Source: a virus. Taken from it: a DNA stretch of 26,446 bases. The notes under the pieces are model-generated. The model was given only the letters and a program-made list of their open reading frames with translations, was not told the DNA's origin and ran no database searches. The position numbers and the translations under genes are program-made. The first letter of the stretch is position 1; each line of letters begins with the position of its first letter. Shown piece after piece: positions 4,036 to 19,608 of the stretch. The DNA is taken from positions 1 to 26,446 of the IMG/VR virus record IMGVR_UViG_3300042541_002482. The stretch is one strand, 5' to 3'.

Positions 4036-4487
4036 GGAATTATTTTTTCTAATTGTTTATCTCTATGTTCTTGTAAAGAAGTCGGTATCATATTAAAAAA
4101 AAGATGATTACCTATGAGAACTTGCTTTATTGTTAAAAATAGACCATCTTTTAATATGGCTTTAACTATCTCACCATTTTGATTTTCGATACAATGTACT
4201 TTTAATGTTAGTTTTTCAATTTTACTATCATTTAAAATAAATGTCATACCACTTACAGTACAACATATATTTTTCATAGGTACTACATCATCATTACTAT
4301 CAAGTGTAATAAACTTTGAAATGTTATCTATATCAAACTCTATTCTTTTGCCTTGTTCTAGTAGAAGATTTAATTTTATCTCACGATATATTGACTTCCA
4401 CTCTTTATAAGTTGATAAAGCGTCATTATAATCATCTAATTTTACATCATCATCTAAATCAACATCTAAGAAAAAATCCGGTTCCAT
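4026..4487 (-). CDS. Hypothetical protein downstream of RNase R
   Basis: 153 residues, not recognised. The N-terminus is very acidic (eight Asp or Glu within residues 2-19), the middle is mostly beta-prone with alternating hydrophobic residues, and the C-terminus is basic. No signal peptide, membrane segment or metal-binding motif is visible. Its ATG overlaps the RNase R stop by one base (TAATG on the minus strand), so translation is probably coupled. It is the last gene of an operon read from 6770. A partner or regulator of RNase R is a reasonable guess from context only. Confidence 0.75.
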   Translation of the reverse strand: MEPDFFLDVDLDDDVKLDDYNDALSTYKEWKSIYREIKLNLLLEQGKRIEFDIDNISKFITLDSNDDVVPMKNICCTVSGMTFILNDSKIEKLTLKVHCIENQNGEIVKAILKDGLFLTIKQVLIGNHLFFNMIPTSLQEHRDKQLEKIIPKK

Positions 4488-6370
4488 TAAAATAATTCAA
4501 AGTCTATTTGTTTTCTGTCTAAGTCAACTGATTTAACGGTTACTTTTACTTCATCACCTAATCTTATTGATCCACCAGATTTTAAATTAACTGTATAGTT
4601 TTCTGTGTCAACACTATGATTACCATTATATCTAACCATACCTTCACATTTACTTTCAATTAACTCAACATACATACCCCAGTCAGTTACTCCTGATACA
4701 ATTCCATCAAAAACTTGTCCGATTTTATCTTCTAAGTATTCAATTTGTTTGTATTTAATAGAATCTCGTTGAGCTTTTGCTGCTAAGATTTCTCTCTCTG
4801 AACACCATTTAGCCATACCTTCAATTTTTTGAGGACTTCCAGTAGATTTCTTGTTTAAGAAATCCATTAAAACTCTATGAGTTATTAAATCTGGGTATCT
4901 TCTAATTGGAGAAGTAAAGTGAGAATAGTGAGTAAATCCTAATCCATAGTGTCCTGCATTTACTATTGTATAAGTAGCTTTAGACATACATCTTGTGATT
5001 AAAGTTTCAATCATATTTTCTTCTGGTTGATCTTTTATATCAGCAACTAATTGGTTTATAGATTTTTTCAAATTAGTAGTATCTGATGTTAAATCTAAAC
5101 TATAACCAAAGTTTTTACATATTAAGGAAAGTGCTTCCAGCTTTTCAAGATTGGGACTATTGTGTACTCTGTATACATTATGGTATCTAGCATCTGAAAG
5201 AAGTTTTGCAACTAATTTATTTGCTAATAACATATATTCTTCAATCAGTTTATTTGCATCTTTTTGAGTTTTAAAATAAACACCTGTTGGCTTCTTTGTA
5301 GTTTGGTCTAATTGAAATCTTACTTCAATTCCACCCATTTCAATAGAACCATCATTTATTCTTTGTTTTCTCATTTTCTTAGCAATCGAATCTAATAGTA
5401 GTATTTCAGTTTTGAAATCACCGTCTTTACCTTCAATTATTTCTTGAGCTTCTTCATAAGAGTATCTTCTATCTGAATGTATAATAGTTTTTCCAAACCA
5501 TTTATCAAGTATTTGTCCGTCATTGTTTAGTTTAACAATAACAGAGAAACAAAGTTTATCTTCATTAGGTCTTAATGAACATACACCATTACTTAATCTT
5601 TCTGGTAACATTGGTACACATCTATCAACTAGATATACAGATGTTGCTCTTTTAATAGCTTCTTCATCGATTATTCCACCTTCTTTAATATAGTGTGAAA
5701 CATCTGCGATATGAATACCTACTTCAACTGTATTATCATCAATTATATTAACTGAAAGAGCGTCGTCAAAATCTTTGGCGTCAACTGGGTCAATTGTAAA
5801 GGTTGTGGTATTTCTTAAATCTCGTCTGTTACTGATTTCTGATTCGGGAATTGTGAAGTCTATTAATTCCGCTTCGGCTTCTACCATTAAAGGAAAGTTG
5901 TTTGGTAAACCGTACTCATACATAATTGAGTTCATTTCTGCATTATTTTCACCTGAACTACCAAGTATCTCTACTATTTTTGCTTTAGGTGATTTTGTTC
6001 CTGGTTCCCAGTCTATTAATTCGATAAGAACTTTTTGGTCTTGTAATGCGTCGTGTTCTCCTTTTATATAAAAGTCGACTGCAATTTTTTGACTGTCGGG
6101 TACTACAAAGATAAGTCTTTTATTTTCTTTGTTTATTTGTACTTTACCGACAAATTGAGTTCTAAATCTTTCAAGAACTTCGAGAACTTCAGCTTCTAGC
6201 TTATTGTTCTTAGTGATTATTTTCACTTTTACTTTATCACCGTTAAGTGAGTTGAGAGTGTTTCTTTTAAATATAAAGATATTTTTATCTAAAATATTTA
6301 TTGAGGCATTTCCGCTGTTTGCGAAATCGATAGTACCCTCAAAAATACTATCTTCTTTAATTTTATTCAT
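4487..6370 (-). CDS. rnr: RNase R/RNase II family 3'-5' exoribonuclease
   Basis: 627 residues. Order: N-terminal cold-shock-like OB domains (about residues 8-65 and 72-135), the RNB catalytic domain (about 183-505) and a C-terminal S1 domain (about 550-627). The catalytic box I-D-P-V-D-A-K-D-F-D-D-A gives D194, D200, D202 and D203, matching the four metal-binding aspartates of E. coli RNase II in spacing. Downstream are G-I-H-I-A-D-V-S-H-Y near 219-227, R-L-S-N-G-V-C-S-L near 258-266 and T-S-P-I-R-R-Y-P-D-L near 486-495. The active enzyme degrades RNA, including structured RNA, from the 3' end. It lacks the N-terminal HTH and long basic tail of E. coli RNase R (813 residues), but all catalytic parts are present. 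It overlaps the upstream gene by 8 bases and the downstream gene by 1. This is an unusual gene for a phage. Confidence 0.93.
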   Translation of the reverse strand: MNKIKEDSIFEGTIDFANSGNASINILDKNIFIFKRNTLNSLNGDKVKVKIITKNNKLEAEVLEVLERFRTQFVGKVQINKENKRLIFVVPDSQKIAVDFYIKGEHDALQDQKVLIELIDWEPGTKSPKAKIVEILGSSGENNAEMNSIMYEYGLPNNFPLMVEAEAELIDFTIPESEISNRRDLRNTTTFTIDPVDAKDFDDALSVNIIDDNTVEVGIHIADVSHYIKEGGIIDEEAIKRATSVYLVDRCVPMLPERLSNGVCSLRPNEDKLCFSVIVKLNNDGQILDKWFGKTIIHSDRRYSYEEAQEIIEGKDGDFKTEILLLDSIAKKMRKQRINDGSIEMGGIEVRFQLDQTTKKPTGVYFKTQKDANKLIEEYMLLANKLVAKLLSDARYHNVYRVHNSPNLEKLEALSLICKNFGYSLDLTSDTTNLKKSINQLVADIKDQPEENMIETLITRCMSKATYTIVNAGHYGLGFTHYSHFTSPIRRYPDLITHRVLMDFLNKKSTGSPQKIEGMAKWCSEREILAAKAQRDSIKYKQIEYLEDKIGQVFDGIVSGVTDWGMYVELIESKCEGMVRYNGNHSVDTENYTVNLKSGGSIRLGDEVKVTVKSVDLDRKQIDFELF

Positions 6371-6956: not shown

Positions 6957-9152
6957 ATGAAACCGGTTTTAATAGTAGAAAATTCAACAAGTTCTTTGAT
7001 TAAGGAAAATTCCTCTAATCAAAAAGACTATGTATTGGGTGGTACTTTTACTGAGTTTGGTGTAAAGAATCGTAATGAGAGAATATATCAAGCTGAGAAA
7101 TTTTTACCATCATTACAAGAAATGAACGAAAGAATGAACAGCTTAGGTGCTGTCTATGGTGAATTCGATCACCCGGATGTCTTTGATACTTCGTTATCAA
7201 GAGCATCACACATTATTACAAAGGCAGAGTTTGTTGCTGAAAAGAACATCGTTGCTGGAGAAATAAAATTACTAAGTACTTACTGGGGTAAAGAAGCGAA
7301 AGCATTAGTTGACGATGGATGTCCAGTTTTTGTATCATCAAGAGCAGCGGGTATAACAGAATCAGATGGTTCAGTATCATTGAAAAAACTTTTTACTTAT
7401 GACATTGTTGCGGATCCAGGATTTGCTTCAGCGAAAATGAGTGTTAGAGTTTTGAATGAGTCATTAGGTTTTTGCCCAGAAGGACAAATCGAAAAAAATA
7501 ACTTTAGGATATATGAATTGTCCGACGAGTCAAAAATAAATGAATTATTCGGTATGAACAAAGATGAATTTGTAACCAAGAAACAACTAAGTGATTATTC
7601 ACAGTATTTGGTTAAAGAGATTGCTTCAACAAAGAATGAAGTAAAAAGTGCTATTTCTAAAGGTAATATGCCTGCTAAGAAATTAGAACAACTATTAGAG
7701 TATTATGAGGAATTAAATAATACTAACACACAAGTTGCTAAATATTTAGATTATTTAGCTGATAAAATACAAGTTGTGGTTAATGAAAATAAATCATTAA
7801 AAGACACTACTACTAAATTGGCTAAACACAATGATTATTTAGCTGAAAACTTAGAAAAGGCAATTAATTACTCAGAATACTTAGCTGAAAACTTAGACAA
7901 AAACATTGAATACTCTGAGTACTTAGCTGAAAACTTAGACAAAAACATTAACTATTCAGAATATATTGCTGAGAACTTAGATAAAAATATCTCTTACTCA
8001 GAATACTTAGCTGAAAACTTAGACAAAAACATTGAGTATTCAGAATACTTAGCAGAGAACTTAGACAAAAATATCGCTTACTCTGAATATATCGCTGAAA
8101 ACTTAGACAAAAATATCGCTTACTCAGAATATATTGCTGAGAATGTTGATAACTCAATTGCTTACTCAGAATACTTAGCAGAACACGTAGAAGGTAACAT
8201 CGCTTACTCAGAATACATTGCTGAGCATTTAGATGATAACATCGCTTACTCAGAATATGTAGCTGAAAGTTTAGATAAATCTATCTCTTATCAAGGAATG
8301 ATCGTTGAAAGATTAAATGGTGGTTTTAAATTAAACGAATCTGCTGAAGAAGAAGAAGCTCAATTTCCAACTTTAAAAGATGCTGGTTTTGAAGAAAACG
8401 AAGACGAATTAGGTGAAGAATTAGAAGGACAAGAAGAAGGTGAAGGTCACGGAGATTTCGCTGAAGAAGCTGAGAAATTCGCAGCAGAAGCTGAAGAGTT
8501 TGCAAAAGATGCTGCTGAATTTGCTGGTCATGAAGGACACGAAGGTGAAGAACATGATGAAGAAGAATTTGGAGGTGAATCACAAGAAGAAGATTTCGGA
8601 GGAGAAGAAGCACCAGAATTTACAGGTGAAGAAGACTCAGAACTTTCTGAATCAATAAATAGATTAATTGAAGAAGCTAAAAAACGTAAAGTTTCTGAAA
8701 GCAGTGATTTGAACTTTTTAAAGTTCTTAAACAAATCACAAGTTGATAGCTTTTATGCACTATCAGACGAAGAACAAGAAAGCGTGAAACTACACATAAA
8801 CGAAAGTAGTTATTTTACACAAAAAGAAGTTCTTACTTTGATTGCTGAGTCATTATCAACAAAAAACGAATCTCTTGAAGAAAGAGTAATCAGATTAATG
8901 CCTGAAAACATGAAGCCAATCTGGGGTCAGTTAAACGAATCTGTGAAGAAATCAGTTTTATCACAAGCTAGATTGTATCCAGAAGACGTATTAAAAACTG
9001 AAAATCAAATCGAGCATTTCTGGGCAACTAGAAATCTTAAAAAGAATGAGTCTGTAACTAAGAAATTAGTATCTCATGAAGCGTTAATTCAAGAAGACAA
9101 ATTGTCAAGTAATGAAATGACTGCAATAATGGAAAGATTCAGAAGCTTATAA
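6957..9152 (+). CDS. 21-22: Fused prohead core protease and scaffold (T4 gp21 + gp22 type)
   Basis: 731 residues. Residues about 1-170 are a T4 gp21-type serine protease (MEROPS U9/S80): G-E-F-D-H-P (H72), F-V-S-S-R-A-A-G (S127/S128) and V-A-D-P-G-F near 151-156. Residues 205-290 are helical, and 291-458 are twelve 14-residue repeats of the form Y-S-E-Y-L-A-E-N-L-D-K-N-I-x, two heptads per unit, so probably a coiled coil. Residues 462-565 are extremely acidic (E, D, G, A), and 565-731 form a helical C-terminus. In T4 the protease and scaffold are separate genes; here they are one polypeptide immediately upstream of the capsid gene. Ten of the repeats contain L-A-E or I-A-E, the T4 protease cleavage consensus, so self-digestion during maturation is likely. 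Additional L-N-E or I-N-E sites occur at 166-168, 459-461, 613-615 and 659-661. Confidence 0.9.
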   Translation: MKPVLIVENSTSSLIKENSSNQKDYVLGGTFTEFGVKNRNERIYQAEKFLPSLQEMNERMNSLGAVYGEFDHPDVFDTSLSRASHIITKAEFVAEKNIVAGEIKLLSTYWGKEAKALVDDGCPVFVSSRAAGITESDGSVSLKKLFTYDIVADPGFASAKMSVRVLNESLGFCPEGQIEKNNFRIYELSDESKINELFGMNKDEFVTKKQLSDYSQYLVKEIASTKNEVKSAISKGNMPAKKLEQLLEYYEELNNTNTQVAKYLDYLADKIQVVVNENKSLKDTTTKLAKHNDYLAENLEKAINYSEYLAENLDKNIEYSEYLAENLDKNINYSEYIAENLDKNISYSEYLAENLDKNIEYSEYLAENLDKNIAYSEYIAENLDKNIAYSEYIAENVDNSIAYSEYLAEHVEGNIAYSEYIAEHLDDNIAYSEYVAESLDKSISYQGMIVERLNGGFKLNESAEEEEAQFPTLKDAGFEENEDELGEELEGQEEGEGHGDFAEEAEKFAAEAEEFAKDAAEFAGHEGHEGEEHDEEEFGGESQEEDFGGEEAPEFTGEEDSELSESINRLIEEAKKRKVSESSDLNFLKFLNKSQVDSFYALSDEEQESVKLHINESSYFTQKEVLTLIAESLSTKNESLEERVIRLMPENMKPIWGQLNESVKKSVLSQARLYPEDVLKTENQIEHFWATRNLKKNESVTKKLVSHEALIQEDKLSSNEMTAIMERFRSL
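7827..8330 (+). repeat. Twelve tandem 42-bp (14-codon) repeats in the scaffold
   Basis: Period 42 bases, encoding 14 residues each. The first unit (starting H-N-D) and the last (starting Y-Q-G) are degenerate; the ten between are close copies that vary mainly at the last residue (E, N, S or A) and L/I/V before A-E. Nucleotide identity between central units is high but broken by synonymous changes, so the protein pattern appears to be under selection rather than the repeat being freshly amplified. Confidence 0.95.
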
Positions 9153-9240: not shown

Positions 9241-10980
9241 ATGTCACACATTAGAATAGATAATCAAAAAGCCATGAAAAAATGGTCTCCAGTGTTGGAA
9301 AACATGGGAGTTACAGGTGATAGAGTAGAATGGATGTCAGAATATGCTGAATTTCACTCAATCAACGAAAATGCGTATGTAAACGCATCAAACGTAACTG
9401 GTATGGGTGGAGTACTTGCTGCTCAACCTGGTTCTTATCCAGGACAAACAATTGGTGGTTCTTTAGCAACTGCTAATACTGTTGGAACAATTGGTTCAGG
9501 AGACGTAGGTCAAAACTTATTACCAGTTGCAATGAAAATTGCTGCTCAAACAATTGGTTTAGACTTAGTAGCTGTTAAACCAACTCCAGGTCCAAAAATC
9601 GACTTATTATATATTGACTTTCAATATGATGCTACTCGTTTAGGCGATGCAGATGAAAGACCACAAGTTTTCAAATTAAATGCAACTAACATCGCTGCAG
9701 TTAACTCAATCATTACTGCAAATATTCCTTCTTATATTACTCAAACTCAAGGTGGTTTATCAGGTGGTAGATTATGGTTTAAAGGAATCAATGCAACTGG
9801 TGTTACTGCATCAGCAGTTTTAACTTCTGAGCCAACACAAAAAACTAACGTAGTTGAATTCTTAGGATTCTCTCGTATTGATGGTTTCCCAATGTTTAGA
9901 GCGTACAGACAATCTAATACTGCTGGTACACAACAACCTTATGGTGTTCAACAAAATGCTTGGGGATTTGATACATTAAGAAATACATTCTCTGCAACTG
10001 CGTCAATGACTTCTCAATTTTCTTTTATTGTATCAACTGCTGTAAGTGGTGGTACTATCGAATTAGTATCTGCTTTAGAAGATCATATTCCTGGTTTCTC
10101 TGCAAACTGGTTTGGACCAACTTCTTCAGCTTCTGGTGCTTATCCAATGGATAGAGCAAATGATGATGATAGTTATTCAGGTGTTATTGGACCAAAAATC
10201 TCTTCTAAAACAGTTGCTGTTGGTACTATCGAAGTATCTTCTGCACTTAGAAGAACTGAGATTGAAGATATTAAAGCTAACACAGGTATGGATATCGTTC
10301 AAAAAATGGAATCAATCCTTGTTAATGAATTATCTCAAACAATCTCTAAACAAATTGTTAATAAAATATTTGAAATGGGTTCATTAAATAGAACTAATGC
10401 TCCTGTTGCAGGTGCAACATTCTCGAATGCTATTACTCTTGCATATGGTTCACAAACAATCTTTGACTTAGATACAACTTATGCTGCTACAAATGGTGTT
10501 GTTGGTGGTGAGACTACTCACGCTGTACAAAGAAAATTGATCACTAAAATTGCTCATGCTTCTAACTATATCGCAACAGAAGGACGTGTTGGACCAGCTC
10601 AATACTTAATCACAAATGGAGGTTTAGCTGCTGCATTACAAGATATTGCTGGTTATACTATCAACCCATTAAAATCAAAAATGAACTCTCAAGGTCAATT
10701 ATACCCAGTAGGTTCAATCGGAGACATCTCTATCTATGTTGATCCATATATGAGATATAACGATAACAGAATCGTTTTAGGAAGAAAAAATAACCCTGAT
10801 CAACCAGGTATTATTTTCGTGCCTTACTTAATGGCTCAGTCAATTAGCATCATCTCTGAAGCTACATTCGCACCAAGAATGTTACTTAGATCAAGATATG
10901 CAGTAACTGAAGTTGGTTGGTACCCACAAAAACAATTCATGACTATTGTAGTTTCTGATACAAGAGGATTACTTAACTAA
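9241..10980 (+). CDS. 23: Major capsid protein (T4 gp23 type)
   Basis: 579 residues, longer than T4 gp23 (521). The N-terminus has the W-S-P-V-L-E box (residues 15-20). Residues about 99-113 read I-G-L-D-L-V-A-V-K-P-T-P-G-P-K, the hallmark at the start of the gp23 fold. The C-terminus contains the P-Y-L-M-A-Q region and a typical R-Y-A-V-T-E-V-G-W-Y-P end. A propeptide is likely: I41-N42-E43 matches the T4 protease consensus L/I-x-E, so mature protein may begin at N44. The protein forms the icosahedral shell after cleavage by the upstream protease. It follows the protease-scaffold gene by 88 bases and ends before a strong terminator. The codon pattern is the most regular of the window, as expected for a highly expressed gene. 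Confidence 0.93.
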   Translation: MSHIRIDNQKAMKKWSPVLENMGVTGDRVEWMSEYAEFHSINENAYVNASNVTGMGGVLAAQPGSYPGQTIGGSLATANTVGTIGSGDVGQNLLPVAMKIAAQTIGLDLVAVKPTPGPKIDLLYIDFQYDATRLGDADERPQVFKLNATNIAAVNSIITANIPSYITQTQGGLSGGRLWFKGINATGVTASAVLTSEPTQKTNVVEFLGFSRIDGFPMFRAYRQSNTAGTQQPYGVQQNAWGFDTLRNTFSATASMTSQFSFIVSTAVSGGTIELVSALEDHIPGFSANWFGPTSSASGAYPMDRANDDDSYSGVIGPKISSKTVAVGTIEVSSALRRTEIEDIKANTGMDIVQKMESILVNELSQTISKQIVNKIFEMGSLNRTNAPVAGATFSNAITLAYGSQTIFDLDTTYAATNGVVGGETTHAVQRKLITKIAHASNYIATEGRVGPAQYLITNGGLAAALQDIAGYTINPLKSKMNSQGQLYPVGSIGDISIYVDPYMRYNDNRIVLGRKNNPDQPGIIFVPYLMAQSISIISEATFAPRMLLRSRYAVTEVGWYPQKQFMTIVVSDTRGLLN

Positions 10981-11000: not shown

Positions 11001-11027
11001 AAAAAAGACCCAATTGGGTCTTTTTTT
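11001..11027 (+). terminator. Capsid gene terminator
   Basis: A perfect stem AAAAAAGACCC / GGGTCTTTTTT with an AATT loop ends in seven T. It lies about 20 bases after the capsid stop and ends 7 bases before a TATAAATA box for the next gene. A TTG-initiated reading frame for the next gene would run through this stem, which argues against that start. Confidence 0.88.
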
Positions 11028-11033
11028 GTTTTA

Positions 11034-11041
11034 TATAAATA
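11034..11041 (+). promoter_or_regulatory. T4-late-type promoter box TATAAATA
   Basis: An exact TATAAATA lies directly between the capsid terminator and the ATG at 11053. With T4 spacing, transcription would begin only about 6 bases before the ATG, giving a near-leaderless message, which is tolerable in a host that does not depend on Shine-Dalgarno pairing. Confidence 0.5.
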
Positions 11042-11052
11042 ATATATACATT

Positions 11053-11445
11053 ATGAGATTAAAGAAATATTCACAGTTTAATGAATCTAAGAAAGATAAG
11101 TTTCCAAATATTAAAAAGATGGAAATTGATGGATTTTTAGTACATCTGGGTAAAGATGCAAAGTCTAATGACCATCTAACGTTTAATGTTGCTGATAATG
11201 ACGATATATGGATGCACGTAAAGGGTGTTCCTGGAAGTCATGTTGTTATCGTTGTTAGAGATAATATACCAACTCCTGAGTTAATTAAAAAAGTTGCTGA
11301 AATTACAAAAGATAATAGTAAGTCAAAGGGTACCGGTAATGCTGTTGTGGTGTACTGTAAAAGACGTTTTGTCTCAAAAAGACCAGGTATGAATGATGGT
11401 CAAGTAATGGTTGACTACAAAAATGCACATGAAGTCACTATTTAA
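11053..11445 (+). CDS. Stand-alone NFACT-R (DUF814) domain protein with head-targeting-like N-terminus
   Basis: 130 residues from ATG 11053; an upstream TTG at 11014 is rejected because it lies in the capsid terminator. Residues 25-130 match the NFACT-R domain found at the C-terminus of RqcH/Rqc2/NEMF. They show D-G-F-L-V-H-L-G, then N-D-H-L-T-F, then D-I-W-M-H-V-K-G-V-P-G-S-H-V-V-I (51-66), a P-E-L helix ending N-S-K-S-K, and a C-R-R-F-V-x-K-x-P-G-x-x-x-G-x-V end. In RqcH this domain helps bind stalled 50S subunits and tRNA; the NFACT-N, HhH and coiled-coil parts are missing here. The first residues M-R-L-K-K-Y-S-Q-F-N-E-S resemble the T4 capsid-targeting propeptide, with a possible cut after E11. 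Domain call is firm; role in infection is inferred. Confidence 0.85.
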   Translation: MRLKKYSQFNESKKDKFPNIKKMEIDGFLVHLGKDAKSNDHLTFNVADNDDIWMHVKGVPGSHVVIVVRDNIPTPELIKKVAEITKDNSKSKGTGNAVVVYCKRRFVSKRPGMNDGQVMVDYKNAHEVTI

Positions 11446-11478: not shown

Positions 11479-12861
11479 ATGGCCTTTACAAATGACTATA
11501 AAATGAGATATGAAGATGAAATAAAAATTACTTTTTCTGCAAGGTTAAAAACACTTTTAACTAAGATGGAAGATGATTATGATGATTATATCGCATATGA
11601 ACTAAATTGGATGGCGGATCCTAGATCTAAATACGCAAATGATATGAATATATCAAAATTAGATATATCTGATTCAGATTACTTTTTTGACGCTGTTATT
11701 GGTGGTAAAAGACAATACTTAAAAATAGGTACTTTTTTAAGAAGTTATTTTCCTGGAGTTTACGATGATGAAAGTATTAGAAAATTCTCTACTACTATTG
11801 TTCAATTGAAAAAAGGAGTAAAAGTAACTGTTGCACCAGTAGGAACTAGACTAGAACATCAACCTTTTAAATATAATCCTAAAGATGTACGTTCAACTTT
11901 CTTATCTTTAGTTACAAAGACTTATCCAATGGGTCACGAAACAGAAGTTTTACAGTTCTTACCAGACTTAGAAATAGATAAATTTGGTAATTATTATAAA
12001 ATTATTGCAGGTGATAATACTACAATGTTTAGCTCTCACTTAGATACTGCAGATAGAAAACAAGTTGACACAGTATTATTCTCTAAAATGGAAGATGGTG
12101 ATGAATATATTTATACTGATGGTATGAGTATATTAGGAGCCGATGATAAATCTGGAGTTGCTGTTATGTTATATATGATGGCACATAATATTCCTGGATT
12201 ATATTACTTTTTCATTGGAGAAGAAAGAGGTGGTATTGGATCAAGAGATTTAGCAAGTGAATATGATTCATTTGACTATCTTAAAAATATAAAAAGATGT
12301 ATTTCTTTTGATAGAAGAAAAACTGGTTCAGTTATTACTTCTCAATATGGTAGAGTTTGTTGTTCAAATGAATTTGGTGGTGCTTTATGTAAAGAATATA
12401 ACAAAAGTGGATTAAACTTATCTATTGACCCAACAGGAGTATTTACTGACTCTGCATCATTTATGGATGATATTCCTGAGTGTACTAACGTTTCTGTTGG
12501 ATATAATAACGAACATACTGGTAGAGAAATTCAAAATATGACTTATTTAATTAAATTAGCGGAAGCTTCTTTAAAAGTAAACTGGTCCGAATTACCAACA
12601 GTAAGAAAAGTAGGATTAAATGAAGAAGTATTGAGAAAACATAAACCTTTAATTGACGATATTAAAAAATACGCTTTTGGTTTAGAAGTTAAAACAGTTG
12701 GTTATCAAGATAAAATTTTTATTAAGATAGATACTGATATGTCAGATGTTAAAACAATTTTTGACACTCTTTCACAAGTAAAAGGATTAATGTATAAACA
12801 TAAAAATCCAGACCCATACGTTACATTTGATGACGCATTTATTAAAATAGAACTAAGATAA
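11479..12861 (+). CDS. Zinc metallopeptidase, M20/M28/M42 type (paralogue 1)
   Basis: 460 residues. Metal-site motifs run in order: S-S-H-L-D-T (H187, D189), L-G-A-D-D-K-S-G (D222 as bridging ligand), G-E-E-R-G-G (E248/E249, general base and ligand), S-F-D-R-R (D278) and N-N-E-H-T-G (H346). This is a complete dinuclear zinc aminopeptidase or carboxypeptidase set. An N-terminal extension of about 130 residues has no recognisable domain, and the C-terminal 85 residues are an alpha/beta add-on. No signal peptide, so it is cytoplasmic or virion-borne. It is followed one base later by the acidic gene at 12863 and then by a paralogue at 13500, suggesting an ancient duplication. Substrate is unknown; peptide trimming is the family expectation. 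Confidence 0.85.
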   Translation: MAFTNDYKMRYEDEIKITFSARLKTLLTKMEDDYDDYIAYELNWMADPRSKYANDMNISKLDISDSDYFFDAVIGGKRQYLKIGTFLRSYFPGVYDDESIRKFSTTIVQLKKGVKVTVAPVGTRLEHQPFKYNPKDVRSTFLSLVTKTYPMGHETEVLQFLPDLEIDKFGNYYKIIAGDNTTMFSSHLDTADRKQVDTVLFSKMEDGDEYIYTDGMSILGADDKSGVAVMLYMMAHNIPGLYYFFIGEERGGIGSRDLASEYDSFDYLKNIKRCISFDRRKTGSVITSQYGRVCCSNEFGGALCKEYNKSGLNLSIDPTGVFTDSASFMDDIPECTNVSVGYNNEHTGREIQNMTYLIKLAEASLKVNWSELPTVRKVGLNEEVLRKHKPLIDDIKKYAFGLEVKTVGYQDKIFIKIDTDMSDVKTIFDTLSQVKGLMYKHKNPDPYVTFDDAFIKIELR

Positions 12862-12862
12862 T

Positions 12863-13456
12863 ATGATACAGAAATATAAAAGATTTGTAGAAAGAGTTGA
12901 TGATGAAGCTTGGGAGGGTACTGACCAAGATTGGAATGAAGATTGGGCTGGTGGTAATAGAAAAAAAACTAGTACACCATTACCTTCACGTTTTGATATG
13001 TCTGGAGAGATTGCAGACGATGATGACTTTTACGATAGTGAATACTATGGTGGTATTGGTCATAACTTTGATCATTATGATAATAAAGATGGTAACTTAG
13101 ATAGAGATCCTGATTTATCTGATGAAGATATAGAAGATGATGATATGGCACAGTTAAAATACTTATTAAAAGGTATGTTTAAGAATAAAGGATTCAATAA
13201 TGTTTCTATTACTAATGATAGTTTAGACTTAACTATTAGATGTAATTTATCTCATAGAGAAAGATTAAGTGATTTAGTTAGTTTATTTGATCTAGTAAAT
13301 AAGTTAAAAACTGATATATTACCACAGTATGATTCTGATTATGATACTTGGGAATCTCAAAGAGGACAAGTAATGGAATTTAGTTTTTACTATGATGAAG
13401 GATTAAATGATGATACCGATGAAGATTATGGTGAAGATGATGAGGCACCATTTTAA
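12863..13456 (+). CDS. Acidic protein with head-targeting-like N-terminus
   Basis: 197 residues, very rich in Asp and Glu, not matched to a family I know. It opens M-I-Q-K-Y-K-R-F-V-E-R-V, fitting the K-Y-x-x-F signature shared with three other proteins here and resembling T4 internal-protein propeptides. Residues 15-95 are disordered and acidic. Residues about 96-170 look folded, with L-K-Y-L-L-K-G-M-F and L-S-H-R-E-R-L-S-D-L-V-S-L-F, and the C-terminus is again acidic (ends D-D-E-A-P-F). The ATG follows the first peptidase stop by one base, so the two are surely co-transcribed. It may be a packaged internal head protein or an acidic partner of the peptidases. Confidence 0.8.
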   Translation: MIQKYKRFVERVDDEAWEGTDQDWNEDWAGGNRKKTSTPLPSRFDMSGEIADDDDFYDSEYYGGIGHNFDHYDNKDGNLDRDPDLSDEDIEDDDMAQLKYLLKGMFKNKGFNNVSITNDSLDLTIRCNLSHRERLSDLVSLFDLVNKLKTDILPQYDSDYDTWESQRGQVMEFSFYYDEGLNDDTDEDYGEDDEAPF

Positions 13457-13474
13457 TATTTAAAAATAATTTTG

Positions 13475-13482
13475 TATATTTG
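13475..13482 (+). promoter_or_regulatory. TAnnTTTG box before the second peptidase
   Basis: TATATTTG lies 17 bases before ATG 13500. The stretch from the box through the ATG is nearly the same as that before the NADAR gene (box at 15287-15294), with the common pattern TTTG-A-rich-ATTA-AATTATG. No good TTTG -33 element is present, so this is a partial Bacteroidota-type promoter at best. Confidence 0.35.
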
Positions 13483-13499
13483 TAAAAAATTAAATAATT

Positions 13500-14807
13500 A
13501 TGGCAAAAAATAAAAAATCCTTTTTCTCTAGAAAAGAAGAAAAAAGTATAAATCCTTTAGAAATAAAGGATACTTTTTTGAAATTAACTGAATATACAAT
13601 ACCTTACGGTCATGAGCAAAAACTAGAAAGCTATTTACCTAAAGGCTATAAAAAAGATTCTACAGGTAACTATTATATCGAAGTAGGTAATTCAGAAACA
13701 TTATTTACTACTCACTTAGATACTTATTGTACTAAATATGAGAAAGTTAATCACGTTATTGAAGGTGATATTATTAAAACCGATGGTACTACTATTTTAG
13801 GTGGAGATAATAAATTAGGAATGTCTATTTTATTATACATGATAGCTAAAGGTATACCAGGAACTTATTACTTCTTCTTAGGAGAAGAACCAATTTTAAG
13901 TGGTGGTTTATGGGGTTCGAGAAATGCTTTAAATGCAGATCCTGAGTTCTTCAAAAAGTTTAAAAGAGCAGTTGCTTTTGATAGAAAACAAACAGGTTCT
14001 GTTGTTTTAAGACAAAAAGCAAGATTTTGCTGTTCACATAAATTTGTAGATACTTTAGCAGAAGAATTAACTTCTTTAGGAATTACTTCTAAGGCAGATC
14101 CAAATGCTTATTACACTGATACGGCGACGTTTTTAGACATTATTCCAGAGTGTACTAACATTAGTGCTGGTGGTTGGAATGAACACTATAAAACAGAGTA
14201 TGTTGATATATCATATACCATAAAGGTTGCCGAAGCTGCTTGTAAAATTGATTGGGAAAACTTACCAACTGAAAGAGAAGTAAAATTTTTCCAACCTAAA
14301 TATAATGTTGCACCAAGACACCGTTTTGTTAGTAGATCTGTTGTTAAAGAAGTTAAATCTATTTTAAACAAATATGATTTATTACACACTAATACATTAG
14401 AATATGATACATTTAATACAGATACATTAGTATTTAATACTTGGTTTGAGGATAAAGATATTAAAGTAACTATTTTAGATGATATTTTAATTCAAATCGA
14501 AGGTCAGAAAGAAGCTAGATTTAGTTTTAAAGATGTTAAGAAATTAAATATTTATTTAGGTAACATTTTCGGTATTGACATTAATCCAGAGGATTATAAG
14601 ATGATGATCTTTACTGACGACTCTGTAAGTGTATTAGGAATGCGTTTTAAGAGCTTTGAAGATTATGTTAAATACTTTGATAGTATTAACACAGATGATA
14701 CGTCATATGTCGTTAAAAAAGGTGGTGAACAATATACTGAGTATTATGGTGATGTGATACCAAAAGAATTAGTTATTAAGTGGTTTACTGATAATGTTCT
14801 TGAATAA
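13500..14807 (+). CDS. Zinc metallopeptidase, M20/M28/M42 type (paralogue 2)
   Basis: 435 residues. The metal-site set is intact: T-T-H-L-D-T (H72, D74), L-G-G-D-N-K-L-G (D103), G-E-E-P-I-L (E129/E130), A-F-D-R-K (D161) and W-N-E-H-Y-K (H229). Shared blocks such as P-G-x-Y-Y-F-F-x-G-E-E, I-P-E-C-T-N and x-K-x-A-E-A-x x-K show that it is a paralogue of the gene at 11479. It lacks that gene's 130-residue N-terminal extension and instead carries about 170 extra C-terminal residues with a mixed alpha/beta pattern. The asymmetric extensions suggest the two have divided roles or form a heteromer. It has its own TAnnTTTG box 17 bases upstream and a hairpin terminator after the stop. Confidence 0.85.
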   Translation: MAKNKKSFFSRKEEKSINPLEIKDTFLKLTEYTIPYGHEQKLESYLPKGYKKDSTGNYYIEVGNSETLFTTHLDTYCTKYEKVNHVIEGDIIKTDGTTILGGDNKLGMSILLYMIAKGIPGTYYFFLGEEPILSGGLWGSRNALNADPEFFKKFKRAVAFDRKQTGSVVLRQKARFCCSHKFVDTLAEELTSLGITSKADPNAYYTDTATFLDIIPECTNISAGGWNEHYKTEYVDISYTIKVAEAACKIDWENLPTEREVKFFQPKYNVAPRHRFVSRSVVKEVKSILNKYDLLHTNTLEYDTFNTDTLVFNTWFEDKDIKVTILDDILIQIEGQKEARFSFKDVKKLNIYLGNIFGIDINPEDYKMMIFTDDSVSVLGMRFKSFEDYVKYFDSINTDDTSYVVKKGGEQYTEYYGDVIPKELVIKWFTDNVLE

Positions 14808-15310: not shown

Positions 15311-15808
15311 ATGATAACAAGATTTGATGGTAGATATGGATTTCTATCAAACTTCTACCCATGTAAAATAGAATACCAAGGTATTACTTATCCTTCAGTT
15401 GAGCACTATTATGTTGCAATGAAGAGTAATAATGATCAAATGATTGATGGTAGATACTATACTGCAGGAGATTTTAGAGAACTAGTTTCTAAGATAACAA
15501 CTGCTGGTAAAGCTAAACAATTAGGAAAAGTAATAAAAGTACGTTCTGATTGGGAAGAAAAACGATTAGGTTTTATGGAGTGGGCACTTCGTGAGAAATT
15601 TAAAATTGAAGAATTAAAAGAAATGTTACTTTCAACTGGTGATATTACTATTATCGAAGGAAATTATTGGCACGATAATTTTTATGGACAGTGTACTTGT
15701 GAGAAATGTGCTGGTAAAGGAAAGAATAACTTAGGTAAACTTCTAATGCAGATTAGAAGTGAGTTAAATGGTACTCAAAGAAAAGGATTAGAATCAATTT
15801 TATTTTAA
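15311..15808 (+). CDS. NADAR family (YbiA/RibX, DUF1768) ADP-ribosyl glycosidase-like protein
   Basis: 165 residues, normal family length. Motifs in order: G-F-L-S-N-F-Y-P (10-17), P-S-V-E-H-Y-Y-V-A-M-K (28-38), W-E-E-K-R-L-G-F-M-E-W-A-L (81-93), T-G-D-I-T-I-I-E-G-N-Y-W-H-D-N-F-Y-G (109-126) and N-N-L-G-K-L-L-M-Q-I-R (139-149), with a C-T-C-E-K-C cluster at 128-133. NADAR proteins are N-glycosidases. Characterised members act on riboflavin intermediates or remove ADP-ribose from guanine bases, and they often sit with toxin or NAD-metabolism genes. In a phage the likely purpose is to undo host ADP-ribosylation defence or to alter NAD metabolites; this is inference. It is a monocistronic unit between two terminators. 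Confidence 0.9.
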   Translation: MITRFDGRYGFLSNFYPCKIEYQGITYPSVEHYYVAMKSNNDQMIDGRYYTAGDFRELVSKITTAGKAKQLGKVIKVRSDWEEKRLGFMEWALREKFKIEELKEMLLSTGDITIIEGNYWHDNFYGQCTCEKCAGKGKNNLGKLLMQIRSELNGTQRKGLESILF

Positions 15809-18906: not shown

Positions 18907-19608
18907 TTATTTACTTAACTTCTCTAAATCATCTTTTTCTTTCTCAGTTAAAGAACTCATACCGAATTTACTTATCTTATCAAGTATATCATCTAATTCT
19001 TTTGGTTCTTGCATATCATCTAGTTTACTTCCTACTTTATCAAAAGCTGCTAAAGTATCATCCTTATCTCTTAGGTGCATTGTTCGAGGATCTAATCCTT
19101 TAAATAATTCTCCTAAATCTTTAAGATCTTTCATAAATTGTCTATCATCTTCTATTTCATCATCAATCTTTTTAATAAATGAAGTCATTTTCTTAGTGGT
19201 ATCTATTGCGTTTTGTAATACTTTATTTGCTTCTTCTTCTTTACCTTCAGGTACTTTGATATTTTCTATTTTTAGTAAATCTAAAATAGAATCTGATAGT
19301 TGATAAACATCAGTACCAGTCCTTGATTTTATTAAATCAGAAAGTGATGTTTTATTTGCCATTTCTTTTTGATTTTTAGTAAAATGGTATTTAATAGTAT
19401 CAAATACTGAGTAATCAAATAGTTCAAACATTTTATTTTCAAAATCATTTTCTACCTTTTTATCTTTGAAAGTAAATGGTATATAAGTACCTTTTATTCT
19501 TTTGATAATGGATTGGATATATCCACTTGTATTAAGTAAAACCTTAAATACAAATTGTGATATTTTGCCTTCGTTTAGAAAGTCTTCATATTTTTTAATT
19601 TTTTTCAT
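18907..19608 (-). CDS. Helical protein with head-targeting-like N-terminus
   Basis: 233 residues, mostly helical and charged. It opens M-K-K-I-K-K-Y-E-D-F-L-N-E-G-K, which fits the K-Y-x-x-F signature and has L11-N12-E13, an exact T4 prohead-protease site, so I predict cleavage after E13. Residues 15-50 carry a moderately hydrophobic helix (V-F-K-V-L-L-N). The C-terminus reads I-L-D-K-I-S-K-F-G-M-S-S-L-T-E-K-E-K, then L-S-K. I associate this motif with the C-terminal tails of Bacteroidota proteins such as some rhomboid-family members (DUF6576-like). It is the last gene of an operon with 19608-20312 and 20315-21079, overlapping the upstream gene by one base. Function is unknown; it may be a packaged head protein. 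Confidence 0.78.
   Translation of the reverse strand: MKKIKKYEDFLNEGKISQFVFKVLLNTSGYIQSIIKRIKGTYIPFTFKDKKVENDFENKMFELFDYSVFDTIKYHFTKNQKEMANKTSLSDLIKSRTGTDVYQLSDSILDLLKIENIKVPEGKEEEANKVLQNAIDTTKKMTSFIKKIDDEIEDDRQFMKDLKDLGELFKGLDPRTMHLRDKDDTLAAFDKVGSKLDDMQEPKELDDILDKISKFGMSSLTEKEKDDLEKLSK

What the first reader, a model, noticed from the sequence alone, without database searches (positions are those of the whole stretch)
11053..11445. Stand-alone NFACT-R domain placed directly after the capsid gene and possibly virion-packaged
The protein keeps the W-M-H and P-G-S-H-V core of the RNA-binding NFACT-R domain but lacks the other RqcH parts. With a late-type promoter and a propeptide-like N-terminus it could be injected and reach host ribosomes within the first minutes. 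It might block host RqcH, protect tRNA, or bind phage RNA in the head.
Basis: partly seen in the sequence, partly recalled or inferred. Interest (0 to 1): 0.75.

Follow-up and report, generated by a model that had tools for sequence, protein, structure and literature searches.

The report
Capsid-tagged phage NFACT-R protein
A family of large phages, probably infecting Bacteroidota, carries right after its capsid gene a small stand-alone copy of the RNA-binding part of a ribosome quality-control protein, with a front-end tag like the one phage T4 uses to load proteins into its head, so it may be injected into the host together with the DNA.

Summary
Observation confirmed. ORF 11053-11445 is a 130-aa stand-alone NFACT-R domain: Pfam PF05670, 51 bits against a cut-off of 29.8; predicted fold matches RqcH (Z 19.1), FBPS (18.4) and CCDC25 (16.2). 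It is not a stray: 80 IMG/VR loci and two ~640-kb phages carry it, with the capsid gene directly upstream in 68 of 80 and an M20/M28-like peptidase downstream in 76 of 80. 55 of 56 aligned sequences keep WxHx5GSH. NFACT-N was found in 0 of 13 phage records.

The first ~11 residues are a separable tag of T4 capsid-targeting type: the strict pattern fits 64 of 71 non-fused loci, and all 43 distinct N-termini carry E[SGK]K, a plausible prohead-protease site. The same pattern marks 21 of 217 and 15 of 132 ORFs in two relatives, against 3 of 256 in T4, two of them IPII and IPIII. The protease-scaffold gene repeats YSEY[LIV]AE ten times.

Head packaging is well supported by inference; injection, RNA or ribosome binding and any action on host RqcH are untested. 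The 'late promoter' claim fails as stated. New variant of a known kind.

The parts
11053..11085 (+). Predicted capsid-targeting-like propeptide, residues 1-11 (MRLKKYSQFNE), predicted cleavage after E11
   Evidence: Strict pattern fits 64 of 71 non-fused relatives; E[SGK]K in all 43 distinct N-termini. T4 IPII and IPIII match the same pattern. Low-confidence stretch in the model. Cleavage itself inferred.
11086..11442 (+). Stand-alone NFACT-R domain, predicted mature protein of 119 aa, pI 9.35, 13.3 kDa
   Evidence: Pfam, phmmer, Foldseek and VIA-align, charge and mass
11007..11027 (+). Intrinsic terminator-like hairpin plus T run between the capsid gene and the NFACT-R gene
   Evidence: Read directly; stems differ between relatives but stay complementary by eye, and a run of at least 5 T is present in all 43 distinct upstream regions
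11041..11048 (+). AATATATA element starting 12 bases before the start codon
   Evidence: Shared at -12 to -15 by most of 43 distinct upstream regions; genome-wide 60 of 217 upstream regions against 12 antisense in G003; position peaks at -12
9241..10980 (+). Major capsid protein, Gp23 family
   Evidence: Pfam Gp23 E 2.7e-28, PHROG major head protein
6957..9152 (+). Prohead protease fused to a scaffold-like region
   Evidence: PHROG head maturation protease E 3.8e-28
7869..8267 (+). Ten YSEY[LIV]AE repeats, 14 residues apart, in the scaffold region; same aromatic-x2-aromatic...E pattern as the N-terminal tags
   Evidence: 10 matches against 0.92 expected after shuffling, maximum 5; conserved in relatives
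11479..12861 (+). M20/M28-like peptidase, conserved next gene
   Evidence: PHROG peptidase E 1.7e-62; directly downstream in 76 of 80 loci
12863..13456 (+). Acidic protein of unknown function, also with a tag-like N-terminus (MIQKYKRFVER)
   Evidence: No Pfam or PHROG hit; follows the peptidase in most loci
18907..19608 (-). Second clear tag-bearing protein in the window (MKKIKKYEDFLNEG), DUF6576 at its C-terminus
   Evidence: N-terminus, Pfam DUF6576 E 1.1e-10

Best explanation
The gene makes a head-internal (ejection) protein. Its first 11 residues act as a capsid-targeting sequence that docks on the aromatic repeats of the prohead scaffold; the prohead protease then cuts after the conserved Glu, leaving a 119-aa basic NFACT-R domain inside the head. 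It enters the host with the DNA and binds the ligand NFACT-R binds in RqcH, the 50S/tRNA neighbourhood, where, lacking NFACT-N and the coiled coil, it can occupy or protect sites but cannot drive alanine tailing. Shown here: fold, conservation, gene order, tag pattern. Inferred: packaging and cleavage (about 0.7), ejection given packaging (about 0.75), ribosomal RNA or tRNA as ligand (about 0.55).
For: Fold and family. WxHx5GSH kept in 55 of 56 sequences and low dN/dS, so the ligand site is maintained. Position beside the capsid gene in 68 of 80 loci and in two ~640-kb phages. Tag pattern in 64 of 71 non-fused loci; T4 calibration, 3 of 256 ORFs hit, two being the known internal proteins IPII and IPIII, internal-Met control 4 of 935. 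The tag behaves as a module: in the L091-L093 fusion (277 aa) a tag sits at the new N-terminus while INE|SKNKFP is kept before the domain; in L113 (357 aa) MRYIKEYNEYHPNE begins the protein and VME|SKLDRP precedes the domain. Cleavage C-terminal to Glu with Ser preferred at P1' is reported for the SPN3US prohead protease (PMC10052503, passages). The T4 CTS encapsidates and is removed by the maturation protease (PMC7697877, passage). NFACT-R lies near the A-site finger of the 50S in RqcH complexes (PMC8012679, passage).
Against: No proteomic or biochemical data. The NFACT-R domain was poorly resolved in the RqcH-50S maps and tRNA selection lies in NFACT-N, so an isolated domain may bind weakly. 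CCDC25, also a strong fold match, binds DNA. The tag pattern also appears on about a tenth of all ORFs in two relatives, among them a Clp-type AAA ATPase, a ClpP-like protease and a lysozyme, which is more than the T4 precedent and could mean another role. The scaffold repeat could simply be a coiled coil. Some false positives are expected: shuffling gives 2.7 hits in G003 and 1.7 in G004.
Confidence: 0.33

Rival explanations
1. Packaged, but the ligand is DNA: a basic internal protein that binds packaged or incoming phage DNA, as CCDC25 binds DNA and as T4 internal proteins touch DNA through lysines.
For: CCDC25-DNA complexes are among the best fold matches (8woh, 7eof). Mature pI 9.35, charge about +4.9. 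T4 internal-protein lysines contact DNA phosphates (PMC3012670, passage).
Against: Sequence is nearer to RqcH (E 3e-15) than to CCDC25 (E 1e-3); most NFACT-R matches listed in Bacteroidota sit in RqcH-length frames.
Confidence: 0.25
2. Not packaged: a cytoplasmic factor made with the head proteins that tunes late phage translation or host ribosome rescue; the N-terminal motif has another role.
For: Relatives carry other translation genes: aminoacyl-tRNA synthetases and an RNB exoribonuclease in G003 and ribosomal protein bS21 in 5 of 13 records. In bS21 phages of Bacteroidetes the head genes and bS21 are expressed late (PMC9723584, abstract passages and section 18).
Against: Does not explain the variable but always tag-like N-terminus with E[SGK]K in 43 of 43 distinct N-termini, its match to T4 internal proteins, or the cleavage-like site kept inside fusions.
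Confidence: 0.25
3. Structural or assembly protein of the head that uses the NFACT-R fold as a protein- or nucleic-acid-binding part and never acts in the host.
For: Fixed place between capsid gene and peptidase.
Against: Maintained RNA/DNA-binding core; outgroups with related capsid and scaffold genes lack it at that place (LR756501, LR756504), so heads of this type can be built without it there.
Confidence: 0.12
4. Chance or misannotation: a spurious ORF or a fragment of host RqcH picked up by assembly.
For: Some 'phage' records do carry host RqcH: ORFs of 566-570 aa in L037-L039.
Against: Purifying selection, 80 loci in conserved phage context, phage sequences on one side of a branch with SH-aLRT 99 in a quick tree.
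Confidence: 0.01

Closest known systems
RqcH / Rqc2 / NEMF (bacterial and eukaryotic ribosome-associated quality control)
   Same: NFACT-R fold and core residues; 35-38% identity in Foldseek alignments to B. subtilis RqcH chains
   Different: No NFACT-N, HhH, coiled coil or M domain; 130 aa instead of ~570; phage head gene cluster; N-terminal tag
CCDC25 (small eukaryotic NFACT-R protein, DNA sensor)
   Same: Small NFACT-R protein, strong fold match (Z 16.2, rmsd 1.5 over 111)
   Different: CCDC25 chains are longer (172-187 residues modelled) with a further C-terminal part; no capsid tag known to me
Small NFACT-R proteins of algal and giant viruses (prasinoviruses, coccolithoviruses, BFVD entries)
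   Same: Virus-borne NFACT-R-like proteins of 105-171 aa in BFVD, TM 0.71-0.80 by query length; prasinovirus NFACT domain reported in PMC11467894 (passages)
   Different: Named ones are viruses of eukaryotes; no head-gene context or tag reported in the passages read
T4 internal proteins IPI-III with capsid-targeting sequence
   Same: Short N-terminal peptide, aromatic-x2-aromatic...Glu in IPII and IPIII
   Different: Bodies unrelated; T4 has few such proteins by the strict pattern (3 of 256), these phages 15-21; scaffold and protease are separate genes in T4 and one gene here
Phage bS21 (Bacteroidetes phages, PMC9723584)
   Same: Translation-related protein encoded beside head genes in Bacteroidetes phages; virion delivery was suggested there too
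   Different: bS21 is a small-subunit ribosomal protein; different family and gene

Membership tests
NFACT-R domain (PF05670) | Score above the curated cut-off | tested here: met
   51.2 bits against 29.8; 6 of 6 relatives also above it
NFACT-R domain (PF05670) | W-x-H-x5-G-S-H core | tested here: met
   55 of 56 aligned sequences, the window protein among them; L119 (same contig as L011) has lost it
NFACT-R domain (PF05670) | Fold | tested here: met
   Foldseek E 3.9e-10 to RqcH, VIA Z 19.1
RqcH / Rqc2 (full protein) | NFACT-N with HhH and coiled coil | tested here: not met
   130-aa ORF; NFACT_N PF05833 in 0 of 13 phage records, while the same search rings in 11 of 14 control genomes. Records may be fragments.
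RqcH / Rqc2 (full protein) | Alanine tailing on the 50S | not testable with these tools
   Needs biochemistry
CCDC25 / Jlp2 type | NFACT-R followed by a C-terminal extension | tested here: not met
   Model ends with the domain's last strand at 126-129 of 130
T4-type internal protein with capsid-targeting sequence | Short N-terminal targeting peptide ending in Glu | tested here: met
   Matches the strict pattern that picks IPII and IPIII in T4; 64 of 71 non-fused relatives
T4-type internal protein with capsid-targeting sequence | Phage encodes a prohead protease and scaffold | tested here: met
   6957-9152, PHROG head maturation protease
T4-type internal protein with capsid-targeting sequence | Cleaved protein found inside the virion | not testable with these tools
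   Needs virion mass spectrometry
T4-type internal protein with capsid-targeting sequence | Late promoter | tested here: inconclusive
   TATAAATA at -19 in the window, but TATAAAT in 10 of 43 distinct upstream regions and TATAAATA not enriched genome-wide

The most novel reading that the evidence does not exclude
These phages load about a tenth of their proteome into the head behind a common capsid-targeting tag, and one of these injected proteins is a ribosome quality-control domain that reaches host 50S subunits before any phage gene is expressed and blocks or redirects RqcH-mediated rescue, which would be a virion-delivered ribosome quality-control factor.
Probability: 0.17. Interest if true: 0.88.

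Novelty: new variant of a known kind. Interest (0 to 1): 0.62.

Why it matters
I know of no settled function for stand-alone NFACT-R in bacteria or phages, and four literature searches listed no paper that describes it in phages. Conservation beside the capsid gene and a capsid-targeting-like tag make a testable prediction: a piece of the ribosome quality-control machinery rides in the virion. The tag pattern also gives a list of 36 candidate head-internal proteins in two contigs (21 and 15), mostly without a family match, that could guide searches for injected counter-defence or takeover proteins in very large phages.

Tried and rejected
Rejected: RqcH membership (NFACT-N absent). Rejected: late promoter TATAAATA as a general signal. 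Rejected as family members: 'phage' hits H3, H9 and H10, which are full-length host RqcH of 566-570 aa; H11 is a 435-codon FbpA-type CDS in a Helicobacter phage record; H4-H8 and H12-H20 were not opened. Led nowhere: the first genome-contig scan found no relative; PHROGs has no family for the protein; PADLOC none; no tRNA or Rfam match in the window; fusion partners matched no family clearly; the CCDC25 literature search gave nothing usable; no virion proteomics of Tenacibaculum PTm1 found. Ancestry of the phage clade is unresolved: the quick tree joins it weakly (support 38) to two long bacterial branches (the careful search did not finish). L011/L119, the allele that lost the PGSH motif, groups with L104/L113 at support 88 on a long branch; I do not claim recombination.

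Results against the reading: the strict tag pattern misses T4 IPI and Alt and 7 of 71 non-fused loci; bS21 was absent in 8 of 13 records; of 21 tag-bearing ORFs in G003 only 5 have the AATATATA element within 15 bases, against 23 of 196 others. The loci were found with two peptide patterns, one of which (E[SG]KK[DE]KF) overlaps the tag; 25 of 80 loci lack that pattern, and the 21 non-fused ones among them still carry E[SGK]K. For one search I gave 84 of the 111 G003 ORFs of 150 aa or more outside the strict pattern; the 27 left out were mainly ones whose N-terminus looks tag-like by eye, so that set was picked by hand. For some searches I gave 35 of 36 tagged ORFs, one crossing a piece boundary. 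For the tree, 28 of the phage sequences at hand and all 80 bacterial loci.

Full report
What is there. The ORF at 11053-11445 codes for 130 residues. It scores 51.2 bits for Pfam NFACT-R_1, cut-off 29.8; its best solved-structure relatives by sequence are B. subtilis RqcH, S. suis FBPS and human CCDC25. A model built on an alignment of 56 phage sequences, the window's included, has pLDDT 83.6 and pTM 0.73, with residues 1-14 under 50. Foldseek and VIA-align match it to RqcH (E 3.9e-10, Z 19.1), FBPS (Z 18.4) and CCDC25 (Z 16.2). In a library of viral models there are eight confident matches; two are named, both from giant viruses, and six have no name in the tool's tables.

It is a phage gene family. 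A first scan gave 12 IMG/VR loci and a profile scan 80; two ~640-kb metagenomic phages also have it. Among the 80, the capsid gene is the ORF directly upstream in 68, another ORF in 11, and one locus ends there; the M20/M28-like peptidase is directly downstream in 76; 69 are solo proteins of 127-140 aa, 9 are longer fusions and 2 are short. Contigs reach 476,236 bases. The other phage-collection hits that I opened are host RqcH of 566-570 aa, or an FbpA-type gene, in such records. Capsid relatives point to phages of Bacteroidota: Prevotella Lak phages, Tenacibaculum PTm1, Chryseobacterium MA9V and Flavobacterium MaF61, at 24-30% identity, besides one Sphingomonas phage. Outgroups LR756501 and LR756504, with capsid proteins at 52-53% identity, do not have it beside the capsid gene.

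Selection. dN/dS is 0.04-0.22 between the window and nine relatives; the capsid gene gives 0.37-0.51 in six comparisons. One allele, L011, gives 0.52 and, on the same contig, L119 has lost the PGSH motif, although it still scores 55.8 bits. So the gene is normally under strong constraint but can degenerate or change.

Against bacteria. Bacterial best matches are 32-45% identical; 76 of 80 have at least 305 open codons upstream of the match, that is, RqcH-like proteins. Of 247 Bacteroidota genomes, 187 have an NFACT-R match, the listed ones mostly in frames of about 490-660 aa. A published survey found rqcH in 404 of 1,956 FCB-group genomes (PMC11633108, section 5 read); the difference is probably method, and I did not resolve it. 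In a quick tree of 108 sequences the 28 phage rows lie on one side of a branch (SH-aLRT 99, length 1.78), with no resolved bacterial parent.

The N-terminal tag. The window protein begins MRLKKYSQFNE|SKK. Relatives begin MIKKFNSFNESKK, MRNLSTFKRFLNEGKK, MKHINNFKLYLESKK, MKYLKYFESKK and so on. The letters vary, the pattern does not: basic start, aromatic, two residues, aromatic, Glu, then S/G/K and K. The strict pattern fits 64 of 71 non-fused loci, 37 of 43 distinct N-termini, and E[SGK]K is in all 43. As one search pattern overlapped the tag, the 25 loci lacking that pattern matter: the 21 non-fused among them also keep E[SGK]K. As a yardstick, the same strict pattern hits 3 of 256 T4 ORFs: IPII, IPIII and gp61.1; IPI and Alt are missed. 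In relative G003 it hits 21 of 217 (shuffle mean 2.7, maximum 9; internal Met 9 of 913) and in G004 15 of 132 (1.7, maximum 6; 6 of 472). So these phages seem to have many tagged proteins. Of 35 tagged ORFs scanned, few match Pfam: the two NFACT-R, and among others an AAA/Clp ATPase, a ClpP-like protease, a lysozyme and an HNH protein. Eighty-four hand-picked G003 ORFs outside the pattern include portal, capsid protein, topoisomerase, aminoacyl-tRNA synthetases, adenylosuccinate synthetase and an RNB exonuclease.

Scaffold. The protease gene 6957-9152 carries ten YSEY[LIV]AE repeats, 14 residues apart; shuffling gives 0.92 on average. The repeat is conserved in relatives (11 of 12 loci shown there, L103 being cut off before the scaffold) and in the outgroups LR756501 and LR756504. 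The aromatic spacing equals the a-d spacing of a coiled coil (my inference), so a tag helix could dock among the repeats.

Fusions. In L091-L093 a tag (MKNIITFKKYFES) heads a 277-aa protein and INE|SKNKFP stands before the NFACT-R part; in L113 MRYIKEYNEYHPNE heads 357 aa and VME|SKLDRP stands before it. In L060, L065, L075 and L120 a ~110-aa stretch precedes an internal Met that starts the usual tag; in LR756502 that codon is ATT. These favour a cleavage site, or an internal start, right before the domain. Prohead proteases cut after Glu: A-X-E with P1' Ser preferred in SPN3US (PMC10052503, passages).

Upstream region. All 43 distinct capsid-to-NFACT-R intergenic regions hold a run of T after a hairpin whose stem letters differ but stay paired by eye, and most an AATATATA starting 12-15 bases before the start codon. 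The element is enriched upstream of genes (60 of 217 in G003, 12 antisense, Markov mean 7.1) with a peak at -12. A fixed distance to the start codon suggests a translation signal rather than a -10 box; I did not test this.

Mechanism. Best reading: a head-internal protein, trimmed and ejected, whose NFACT-R domain engages the 50S/tRNA neighbourhood. Shown: fold, conservation, context, tag pattern. Inferred: packaging, cleavage, ejection, ligand, effect. NFACT-R lies near the A-site finger in RqcH complexes but was poorly resolved (PMC8012679, passage), and tRNA choice lies in NFACT-N (PMC8373112, passages), so a direct block of RqcH is a guess. DNA binding in the CCDC25 manner is the main rival.

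Known or new. Virus-borne NFACT domains are known in prasinoviruses and coccolithoviruses (PMC11467894, passages). Searches for NFACT-R with phage, DUF814 with phage, RqcH with huge phages and RqcH with phage listed no paper that describes a phage NFACT-R protein; of the listed papers I opened only PMC8012679 (passages) and PMC11633108 (passages and section 5). The paper that defined the NFACT families (Burroughs and Aravind 2014, cited in passages I read) is not held under the DOI I recalled, so it may mention stand-alone NFACT-R that I could not check.

Noticed in passing
G003 and G004 (loci L020-L034): About a tenth of ORFs (21 of 217, 15 of 132) begin with a T4-capsid-targeting-like peptide, far above T4 itself.
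   Followed up: partly
window 11041-11048 and upstream of many genes in G003, G004: AATATATA element peaking at -12 from the start codon, enriched on the sense strand; perhaps a translation-start signal of these phages.
   Followed up: partly
window 4487-6370: Phage-encoded RNase R-like exoribonuclease (RNB, cold shock and S1 domains) beside the head genes.
   Followed up: no
window 15311-15808: NADAR-family protein (Pfam E 3.4e-24), also matching a PADLOC candidate model, conserved in many relatives.
   Followed up: no
window 11479-14807: Two M20/M28-like peptidase genes (PHROG 4191), the first next to NFACT-R in 76 of 80 loci; role unknown.
   Followed up: partly
L011 / L119: NFACT-R allele only 59% identical to the window while the other matched neighbours are 79-96%, with the PGSH core lost but the tag kept.
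   Followed up: partly
L113 3320-5364: A complete 357-aa NFACT-R fusion overlaps an endonuclease-like ORF that ends with a second copy of the NFACT-R C-terminus, as if a homing gene sat in a duplicate.
   Followed up: no
L035 near 11980: In LR756502 the tag's start codon position reads ATT after an AAGGAG, in frame with an upstream ORF: non-ATG start or fusion.
   Followed up: no
L037, L038, L039: Phage-collection records that carry complete host RqcH genes (566-570 aa), pointing to host sequence in those records.
   Followed up: yes
G003 (L020-L028): Several aminoacyl-tRNA synthetases, a NusA-type protein, malate:quinone oxidoreductase and adenylosuccinate synthetase in one phage contig.
   Followed up: no
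T4 18966-19130 (L210): T4 gp61.1 starts MKTFKEFIKED and fits the strict tag pattern; it may be an unrecognised internal protein.
   Followed up: no
L071, L079, L097, L106: A ~210-230-aa MSRPY... protein gene sits between capsid gene and NFACT-R in some relatives; possibly a head decoration protein, no clear family match for L106.
   Followed up: no
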